From Mucilaginibacter sp. (GTDB taxonomy: Bacteria > Bacteroidota > Bacteroidia > Sphingobacteriales > Sphingobacteriaceae), in the NCBI RefSeq assembly GCF_028288205.1, contig NZ_JAQBOD010000018.1:62001-126000 (forward strand): DNA of 64,000 nt. Direction: 5' to 3'. Both the position numbers and the translations under genes were made by a program. Below, in pieces: positions 3,294-25,474 of this stretch. The notes below the pieces were generated by a model that had not been told where the DNA came from, did not search any database, and worked only from the letters and a program-made list of their open reading frames with translations. Position 1 is the stretch's first letter, and every line of letters starts with the position of its first letter.

Positions 3294-3486
3294 TGTTTCA
3301 TCACATCGAGATTGCCAATTTGCAATTATTTGATCATCAGGAATTAAACACATATCACCCATAAAAAGGCAGACGAATAAGTTGTTTCATTTTGTTTCAT
3401 TACTTTTTTGTAATTAACTCATTGGCAATGCTTTAAGTCAAAATCTTGTTTCACTTGTTTCATTTGTTTCACCCTCGCGTGAAACA
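3294..3486 (+). repeat. TGTTTCA heptamer array, copy A
   Basis: TGTTTCA at 3294, 3383, 3393, 3447, 3456, 3465 and inverted TGAAACA at 3480. Confidence 0.8.
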
Positions 3487-6604: not shown

Positions 6605-6801
6605 TGTTTCACATCAGGTGTTTCACCCTATTTTTGCAAAAATCCATAAAACAGCATAAAACACTTATTGTAAGCTATTTATACTATTTTACCTGAAGCT
6701 TTGGTACTGTTTCAAAGTGTTTCACTCATTTTGTCAAATTATTAAATATCAATAGGTTAACCTAAAAAAGTGTTTCATGTGTTTCATTGTTTTGTGAAAC
6801 A
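6605..6801 (+). repeat. TGTTTCA heptamer array, copy C
   Basis: TGTTTCA at 6605, 6619, 6708, 6718, 6771, 6780 and inverted TGAAACA at 6795. Confidence 0.75.
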
Positions 6802-24321: not shown

Positions 24322-24900
24322 TTAGAAGCCGTAAGCTACACGCAAACCAAAGAGGTTAACCTTACTATCGCTGTTAGTGCTTACAAGTTTGGTACTGGCC
24401 TCATAACGTACGCCTGCATCCAAAAAGCTTTTACCACCTAACGGGAACTGGTAGCCAACTTGCGGCGCATAAATAAAGGCAGCAGAGTTATCGGCACCAA
24501 TCTTAGTTTTGTCTAATACAAAAGCTGCACCGGCTTCTCCCTGGATGTAAAAATTACTTACCGGGAAGTACTTTAAACCTGCTTTTGCCGGTAACAACTG
24601 GATATCAGCCGGAGATACTGCTGTGCCTGCAACATTTTTAGCAAAGATATTATTGTACCCTGCATTTATTGTAACAAATAATTTGCTGGCTACCGGGATA
24701 TCTGCCTGTACAGAACCGCCAAGGTTCCATTTATAATTATCAGATAATTTTCCTGTAGGGATACCGGCATCAACACCGATGCTGTAGCGAACGCCGCCTG
24801 AAGTTGTTGTGGTAGATGCAGGGGTGGATTGTGCTTTAGCGCCAAGGGTAAAACCTGCTAAGGCTAAAACAAGTGCTGAAATTTTTAATGTACTTTTCAT
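24322..24900 (-). CDS. Outer-membrane beta-barrel protein, paralogue of the 23467..24081 gene
   Basis: Signal peptide; shared motifs with neighbour (TLRIGAGVEG/YSIGVDAG, FYFQGEAG/FYIQGEAGAA); terminal VAYGF. Confidence 0.82.
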   Translation of the reverse strand: MKSTLKISALVLALAGFTLGAKAQSTPASTTTTSGGVRYSIGVDAGIPTGKLSDNYKWNLGGSVQADIPVASKLFVTINAGYNNIFAKNVAGTAVSPADIQLLPAKAGLKYFPVSNFYIQGEAGAAFVLDKTKIGADNSAAFIYAPQVGYQFPLGGKSFLDAGVRYEASTKLVSTNSDSKVNLFGLRVAYGF

Positions 24901-25268
24901 GATTATATGTTATTAAATTGTTGTGTGTGTTTGTTTAACACGAAGCAAAGTAACAGCATAAATTAAATACGATTTTTCATTGAAATGTCAAGATTATTCA
25001 ATCGATTGATTAACAATGATTTATTTTTTGACTAAATGGGTATTTAGGTCAGTGTAATGTAAAATCAGTTCAAATTGTCTTTTTGATGAAATAAAAAGCT
25101 GGCATTGTGATGAAGAAATAAACTTAAATTAAAAAGTTGAATGTGATTATAACTTATAAAGTTCGCGAAATTCTCAAAGAGGAACGTCGTAAGAGCGCTG
25201 CCATCCTGAGTAAGCGATATTTGTTGGGCAACTATAATATAATGGCTGCATTATATTGTCAGTGATTT

Positions 25269-25474
25269 TGTTTCATCTTGTTTCACCACTCCTAAATCAG
25301 GCAATTTGTAATTATTTGATTATCAATGAAAAATATTAAAATCATACTTAAAAATACTGAGGAATAAGTTGTTACATTTTGTTACATCACTTTTTCACAA
25401 TCATCTAATAAACAATGTTTTAAATCAAAATCTTGTTTCACTTGTTACATTTTGTTTCACTATTACGTGTAACA
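25269..25474 (+). repeat. TGTTTCA/TGTTACA heptamer array, copy B
   Basis: TGTTTCA at 25269, 25279, 25434, 25453; TGTTACA at 25370, 25380, 25443; inverted TGTAACA at 25468. Confidence 0.8.

What the first reader, a model, noticed from the sequence alone, without database searches (positions are those of the whole stretch)
25269..25474. Copy B of the heptamer array shows coordinated TGTTTCA to TGTTACA switching
Relative to copy A, both heptamers of the second pair (25370, 25380), the middle of the triplet (25443) and the inverted terminal copy (25468, TGTAACA = complement of TGTTACA) changed together at the same internal position. The first pair and the outer triplet members stayed TGTTTCA. Coordinated substitution at four separated 7-mers, including the inverted one, is unlikely from random drift. 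It suggests the sites are functionally or structurally coupled, through pairing of direct and inverted copies or a shared binding protein.
Basis: partly seen in the sequence, partly recalled or inferred. Interest (0 to 1): 0.8.

Follow-up and report, generated by a model that had tools for sequence, protein, structure and literature searches.

The report
Self-spaced chromosomal heptamer arrays in Mucilaginibacter
A soil bacterium carries about 78 copies of a 200-base pattern of repeated 7-letter DNA words, spread at intervals along its chromosome; each copy is kept intact by selection and its words change in step, which suggests that an unknown protein uses them to fold or mark the chromosome.

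Summary
In detail: against copy A (3294-3486), copy B (25269-25474) has TGTTACA at four heptamers, including the inverted one. It is a small view of something larger. The genome (Mucilaginibacter MAG, 3.9 Mb) holds about 40 arrays of this family (B) and about 38 of a sister family (C; one at window 6605-6801). All are intergenic. The layout is fixed: R-R, a 46-48 bp spacer with an IHF-type site, then (R)-R-R, 8 bp, inverted R.

Against a relative with arrays at the same positions, spacers differ by 14-17%. Interior heptamers differ by about 1% or less, except one base that toggles T/A. Each array is therefore under selection. T->A changes are directional (35:2), occur in a nested order of sites, cluster within arrays (p=0.0055) and are tied to spacing (p=3e-6). 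That supports a shared binding protein. Copy B's own four changes are inherited: its orthologue and four other copies have the same pattern, and copy A is the rarer type.

Arrays avoid their own family (about 40-57 kb apart) but not the other. Five relatives lack the copy-B array. Best reading: dispersed IHF-assisted sites for an unidentified heptamer-binding protein, spread by insertion and now maintained. The binder and the cellular role are unknown.

The parts
25269..25474 (+). copy B: complete heptamer array, family B
   Evidence: orthologous array L306 in G041; site empty in five relatives
25269..25285 (+). sites 1-2 (pair 1): TGTTTCA at 25269 and 25279; absent from the minimal arrays of G055/G117
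25309..25321 (-). IHF-type consensus (WATCAANNNNTTR, exact, on - strand) between pair 1 and pair 2
   Evidence: family-wide exact in 32/40 copies against 0.9 in shuffles
25370..25386 (+). sites 3-4 (pair 2), both TGTTACA, 10 bp apart
25410..25422 (+). IHF-type site (AAACAATGTTTTA, 1 mismatch) in the fixed 47-bp spacer between pair 2 and triplet
   Evidence: family-wide <=1 mismatch in 34/38 B and exact in 33/36 C copies
25434..25459 (+). sites 5-7 (triplet): TGTTTCA, TGTTACA, TGTTTCA, spacing 9 then 10
25468..25474 (-). site 8, inverted TGTTACA; with site 7 an 8-bp-spaced palindrome
3294..3486 (+). copy A: family B array with the all-TGTTTCA pattern, triplet spacing 9,9, pair 1 reduced to one heptamer
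   Evidence: orthologous position L293 in G041

Best explanation
Copy B is one of about 78 dispersed chromosomal nucleoprotein sites. SHOWN: arrays have a fixed polar layout (R-10-R, 46-48 bp with a conserved IHF-type motif, then R-R(-R) at 9-10 bp, 8 bp, inverted R); interior heptamers are held nearly constant at individual chromosomal positions while spacers drift; each family is more evenly spaced than random with respect to itself but not to the other family; arrays are gained and lost by insertion (copy B's site is empty in five relatives). INFERRED: a sequence-specific protein, one per family or paralogues with slightly different specificity, binds the heptamers on one face of the helix. 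An IHF/HU-type protein bends the spacers so that the heptamer clusters meet, and the resulting complex works at chromosome scale (organisation, anchoring, segregation or division timing). The TGTTTCA/TGTTACA toggling is drift of that protein's tolerated half-site: T->A is accepted first at sites 3 and 6, then 4, 8, 7, 2, 5, so several heptamers of an array change together and in order. The arrays probably spread originally as small mobile elements.
For: Copy number and reversed-pattern control (76 cores against 2; families). All copies intergenic. Ortholog comparison with G041, 34 pairs: spacers 14.5% (B) and 17.4% (C) different; family C sites 3-7 show 1 change in about 590 positions; family B sites 2-8 outside the toggling base 10/703 (1.4%); the toggling base 39/118, between T and A with rare exceptions. 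Directional, nested, within-array clustered and spacing-linked T->A change. IHF-type motif in the inner spacer of four genomes: exact in 33/36 family C copies of G000 against 0.4 in shuffles; left spacer of B exact in 32/40 against 0.9. Self-spacing in G000: B gap CV 0.38 against 0.77, p=0.003; C 0.45 against 0.76, p=0.04; no B-C avoidance; replicated in G117, p=0.016. Species-level drift of the word: TGTGTCA in G111, TGTTGCA at site 7 in G117. Empty site for copy B in G135, G097, G117, G055, G019.
Against: No binding protein was identified; array neighbours are ordinary housekeeping genes with no common partner. G019, as close by RecJ as G055 (90% identity) and 99% complete, has no arrays, so the role is dispensable in the genus. 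Array orientation shows no clear link to local GC skew, giving no sign of a replication-polar function. Even spacing could also come from target immunity or from loss of close repeats by recombination. Several family C positions have spacers no more alike between species than random paralogues, so turnover or conversion also occurs.
Confidence: 0.6

Rival explanations
1. The arrays are non-autonomous mobile elements (MITE-like); heptamers are transposase- or recombinase-binding sites, IHF assists synapsis, even spacing is target immunity, and they have no host function.
For: Flanks unrelated from copy to copy; copy-B site empty in five relatives; presence/absence between G000 and G041; two family C copies end contigs with identical 119-nt stretches, as expected of recent duplicates; small mobile repeats with IHF sites are known (PMC2229807).
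Against: A neutral inserted copy should decay uniformly; here interior heptamers at shared positions keep about 99% identity while spacers lose 14-17%. No target duplication, no full-length element and no transposase next to any array were seen. Inserted DNA at copy B is about 400 bp, not array-sized.
Confidence: 0.25
2. Attachment-like sites for a tyrosine recombinase: the 8-bp-spaced palindrome is a core site, the direct heptamers are arm or accessory sites as in attI or lambda attP, IHF folds the intasome, and arrays recombine with each other.
For: Inverted core with short spacer, same-sequence direct repeats and IHF motif; one B/C hybrid array at an orthologous position (L063/L307); one synteny break at an array (L296).
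Against: Core spacers differ widely among arrays of one genome, which disfavours crossover between them; 30 of 55 G041 arrays keep both flanks of the same G000 array and only one clear rearrangement sits at an array; no cassette genes lie between arrays.
Confidence: 0.12
3. Copy B's four switches are only subfamily inheritance; no coupling among heptamers exists beyond copying of an already switched array.
For: Copy B's pattern is identical in its orthologue L306 and in four other copies; paralogous copies share spacers.
Against: Between orthologous arrays new T->A changes still cluster within arrays (p=0.0055), follow the same site order in both genomes and exceed chance co-change on a spacer tree.
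Confidence: 0.3
4. REP-like elements mobilised by a RAYT (Y1) transposase.
For: Intergenic, species-specific, palindrome at one end.
Against: G002 has 41 heptamer elements and no Y1_Tnp match, while array-free G003, G008, G010 and G022 have full-length ones.
Confidence: 0.02

Closest known systems
P1-type plasmid centromere parS (ParB heptamer A-boxes around an IHF site)
   Same: Short heptamer motifs asymmetrically arranged around an IHF site that bends the DNA, direct and inverted copies together (architecture of P1 parS as described in PMC5016525).
   Different: About 78 chromosomal copies rather than one plasmid site; no second motif class found; heptamer is TGTTWCA; no ParA/ParB partner shown.
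Dispersed Noc or SlmA binding sites
   Same: Tens of sites for one protein scattered over a chromosome (about 70 for Noc; PMC4331003); here about 40 per family.
   Different: Noc sites are single short palindromes; here each site is a 105-205 bp multi-heptamer array with bending sites, in two families that each avoid themselves.
Chromosomal parS (ParB)
   Same: The half-site TGTTCCAC resembles the heptamer TGTTTCA.
   Different: True parS in this genus is TGTTCCACGTGGAACA, gapless palindromes clustered at one locus (three in G000); arrays use T or A where parS has C.
Bacterial MITEs with IHF sites (e.g. Correia elements)
   Same: 100-200 bp, intergenic, many copies, IHF-type site.
   Different: No terminal inverted repeats with target duplication; interior heptamers individually constrained.
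Integron attI / lambda attP
   Same: Inverted core pair plus direct accessory repeats; attP uses IHF (from memory).
   Different: Many copies, variable core spacers, no integrase or cassettes.

Membership tests
Chromosomal ParB/parS | site is the genus parS consensus, gapless 16-bp palindrome | tested here: not met
   genus parS is TGTTCCACGTGGAACA at one locus; arrays have TGTT[T/A]CA and a gap between half-sites
P1-type parS | heptamer boxes on both sides of an IHF site | tested here: met
   IHF-type motif in a fixed 45-48 bp spacer between heptamer clusters in four genomes
P1-type parS | adjacent parA/parB operon, plasmid location, hexamer B-boxes | tested here: not met
   chromosomal copies beside housekeeping genes; no plasmid match for copy B; B-boxes not tested
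Noc/SlmA-like dispersed sites | tens of sites for one protein across the chromosome, bound in vivo | tested here: inconclusive
   number and spread fit; binding not testable with these tools
MITE | terminal inverted repeats, target-site duplication, matching autonomous element | tested here: not met
   no consistent duplication by eye in flank listings; no full-length element among BLAST hits; no transposase common to the neighbours
MITE | copies decay neutrally after insertion | tested here: not met
   heptamers about 1% against spacers 14-17% at shared positions
REP/RAYT | presence of a Y1 (RAYT) transposase tracks the element | tested here: not met
Tyrosine-recombinase attachment site | crossover between sites with matching core spacers | tested here: inconclusive
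   core spacers vary between copies; one rearrangement at an array
Known structured RNA | match to an Rfam family | tested here: not met
   only a tRNA in the window

The most novel reading that the evidence does not exclude
Two parallel chromosome-wide sets of centromere-like sites, each with its own heptamer specificity and each self-spaced at roughly 40-57 kb, folded by IHF/HU and co-evolving with two orthogonal binding proteins: a chromosome-organising system of a kind not described before, caught while one of the two changes its recognition word.
Probability: 0.28. Interest if true: 0.88.

Novelty: new variant of a known kind. Interest (0 to 1): 0.68.

Why it matters
If true, a group of Mucilaginibacter has a chromosome-scale site system with more internal structure than Noc, SlmA or MatP sites. 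It also offers a natural experiment: related genomes at different stages of a change in recognition sequence, ordered site by site, so that protein-DNA co-evolution can be read from dozens of replicate sites per genome. Even if the arrays are mobile, per-site constraint plus self-avoidance would be unusual and would make target immunity or domestication of small repeats testable.

Tried and rejected
RAYT/REP mobilisation. Canonical parS. Rfam RNA. A common neighbour gene as binder or mobiliser (Pfam and PHROGs on 150 flanking ORFs; only the 25 commonest families per search were displayed). Replication polarity: no clear link of array orientation to flank GC skew (G041 family B p=0.04, others not significant). 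Carriage on plasmids or phages: no BLAST match for copy B in plasmids or copy C in phages; viral TGTTACA clusters found by pattern are different sequences. Recombination between arrays as the main source of change: most of the apparent chimeras dissolved on inspection of coordinates, one remained. RNA-level function: array orientation relative to genes is mixed, so a transcript-borne role is less likely. Literature: no paper combining Mucilaginibacter with intergenic repeats. R-scape was not run, because coupling by base pairing is not expected for direct repeats; association, nestedness, ortholog and tree tests were used instead.

Full report
CHECK. TGTTWCA occurs 38 times in the window against 19.9 expected.

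EXTENT. In the whole genome (G000, 3.9 Mb, 67 contigs) the core TGTTWCA-N6..10-TGWAACA occurs 76 times against 2 for the reversed control pattern. BLAST separates about 40 copies of the A/B type (family B) and about 38 of the C type. All lie between genes, most often between converging genes (30 of 75). The genus is Mucilaginibacter, judged by named relatives carrying the same arrays. Among 150 genomes of the genus, 16 match the array pattern. B/C-type arrays lie in the group closest to G000 by RecJ identity, with G019 as an array-free member. More distant species have other heptamer-based repeats: G002 about 81 bp, G011 about 170 bp.

ANATOMY. The unit shared with the outgroups is about 105 bp: two direct heptamers 10 bp apart, a 45-48 bp spacer, three direct heptamers 9-10 bp apart (two in family C), 8 bp, one inverted heptamer. 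G000 and its near relative G041 add a further pair about 90 bp upstream. The inner spacer carries an IHF-type consensus: exact in 33/36 family C copies of G000 (shuffles 0.4) and within one mismatch in 34/38 family B copies (shuffles 6.1), with the same trend in G041, G055 and G117. Family B has a second such site in the left spacer, exact in 32/40 copies (shuffles 0.9). That an IHF/HU protein binds there is an inference from sequence.

SELECTION. G041 (MAG RYN_331, called G128; about 93% identical in flanking genes) has arrays at the same positions, and 34 pairs were compared. Family C: spacers 17.4% different, sites 3-7 one change in about 590 positions. Family B: spacers 14.5%, sites 2-8 outside the toggling base 10/703 (1.4%), the toggling base 39/118. 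Inserted sequence that had merely been left to decay would not do this, so each array appears to be under selection. For family B, most pairs are true orthologues by spacer rank. For family C, several pairs are no more alike than paralogues, so replacement or conversion also happens.

COORDINATED SWITCHING. TGTTACA states across copies follow a fixed order of sites, 3 > 6 > 4 > 8 > 7 > 2 > 5. Nestedness is far beyond shuffled columns: 7 inversions against a mean of 29.1 and a minimum of 17. Between orthologues, 35 changes are T in G000 to A in G041 and 2 the reverse, clustered within arrays (p=0.0055). A tree from spacers only gives more same-branch co-changes than branch-length-weighted random placement (29 against 14.7). 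The middle triplet heptamer takes A only with 10-bp spacing (23/23) while T is mostly at 9 bp (8/10; p=3e-6); this is the same difference as between copies B and A. Copy B itself shares its pattern with its orthologue L306 and with L020, L023, L037 and L041, so its four differences from copy A are old and inherited. Other species drift to other words (TGTGTCA in G111, TGTTGCA at site 7 in G117). Together these favour a shared binding protein whose tolerance shifts, over pairing of direct and inverted copies.

DISTRIBUTION. Within contigs, gaps between same-family arrays are too even: B CV 0.38 against 0.77, p=0.003; C 0.45 against 0.76, p=0.04. B and C ignore each other. G117 shows the same (CV 0.69 against 0.96, p=0.016; a few contig lengths there were estimated); G055 is consistent but not significant. 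Either each family has its own spacing requirement or each shows self-specific target immunity. Gap numbers are small (13 and 9 in G000).

MOBILITY. At copy B's position the neighbouring genes are syntenic in five relatives and the site is empty: about 175-190 bp of intergenic DNA in four of them, against about 594 bp in G000; G097 has an N-filled assembly gap in the same region. Copy B arrived by insertion before the G000/G041 split, with extra flanking DNA. Another position (L290/L362) has an array in G041 only. No target duplication, transposase or full-length element was found.

COMPARISON. P1 parS, with heptamer boxes around an IHF site that bends the DNA (PMC5016525), is the closest architecture; Noc sites (about 70 per chromosome, PMC4331003) are the closest distribution. 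The arrays are not chromosomal parS: that site is TGTTCCACGTGGAACA at one locus in this genome. They are not RAYT-linked. They do not meet the defining features of a MITE, although a mobile ancestry is likely.

LIMITS. Both main genomes are draft assemblies; the binder is unknown; the chromosome-level role is an inference from selection, number and spacing; the tree and shuffle tests do not fully remove conversion between copies.

Noticed in passing
L217-L236 (G002), L237-L250 (G011): Other Mucilaginibacter species carry different heptamer repeats: G002 about 81 bp, heptamer palindrome plus hairpin ACTGACAAAC...GTTTTGTCAGT, 41 core matches; G011 about 170 bp. The TTTGTCAGT motif also sits beside arrays in G000 (L052, L076).
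   Followed up: partly
L307 (G041) versus L063 (G000): Same genomic position holds a family B array in G041 and a family C array in G000; the G041 copy has a family-C-like core spacer (TTATTTTG), so it looks like a hybrid.
   Followed up: partly
L091 1501-1619, L092 1501-1619: Two contigs end in an identical 119-nt start of a family C array, as expected of two recent identical copies breaking the assembly.
   Followed up: no
L296 (G041): Left flank matches array L052's left flank and right flank matches the inverted left flank of array L060: a rearrangement breakpoint at an array.
   Followed up: partly
L399-L405 (viral contigs): Phage contigs carry TGTTACA direct-repeat clusters with 9-10 bp spacing on both sides of a 40-52 bp gap; in L405 it lies directly after a P4-type primase-like gene, so it may be a phage replication origin with similar iterons.
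   Followed up: partly
window about 24990-25060: Upstream of the outer-membrane gene at 24322-24900 the block ATTATTCAATCGATTGATTAAC and a following TTTTTTGAC...GGTATTT..GTCAG block are conserved in six relatives: likely promoter or operator.
   Followed up: no
L048, L049, L056, L060, L065 left flanks: Another short repeat (AGTGTAAACTTTTTTCAGGACGGGTC) and an ATTTACATCAATAGTATTGCCCGGCGGGGTCGC block recur beside family C arrays.
   Followed up: no
L369-L398 (G055, G117): In G117 an extra inverted heptamer about 30 bp upstream forms TGAAACAaaaaatgacttaaaagtcattttTGTTTCA with pair 2, which suggests another variant of the architecture.
   Followed up: no
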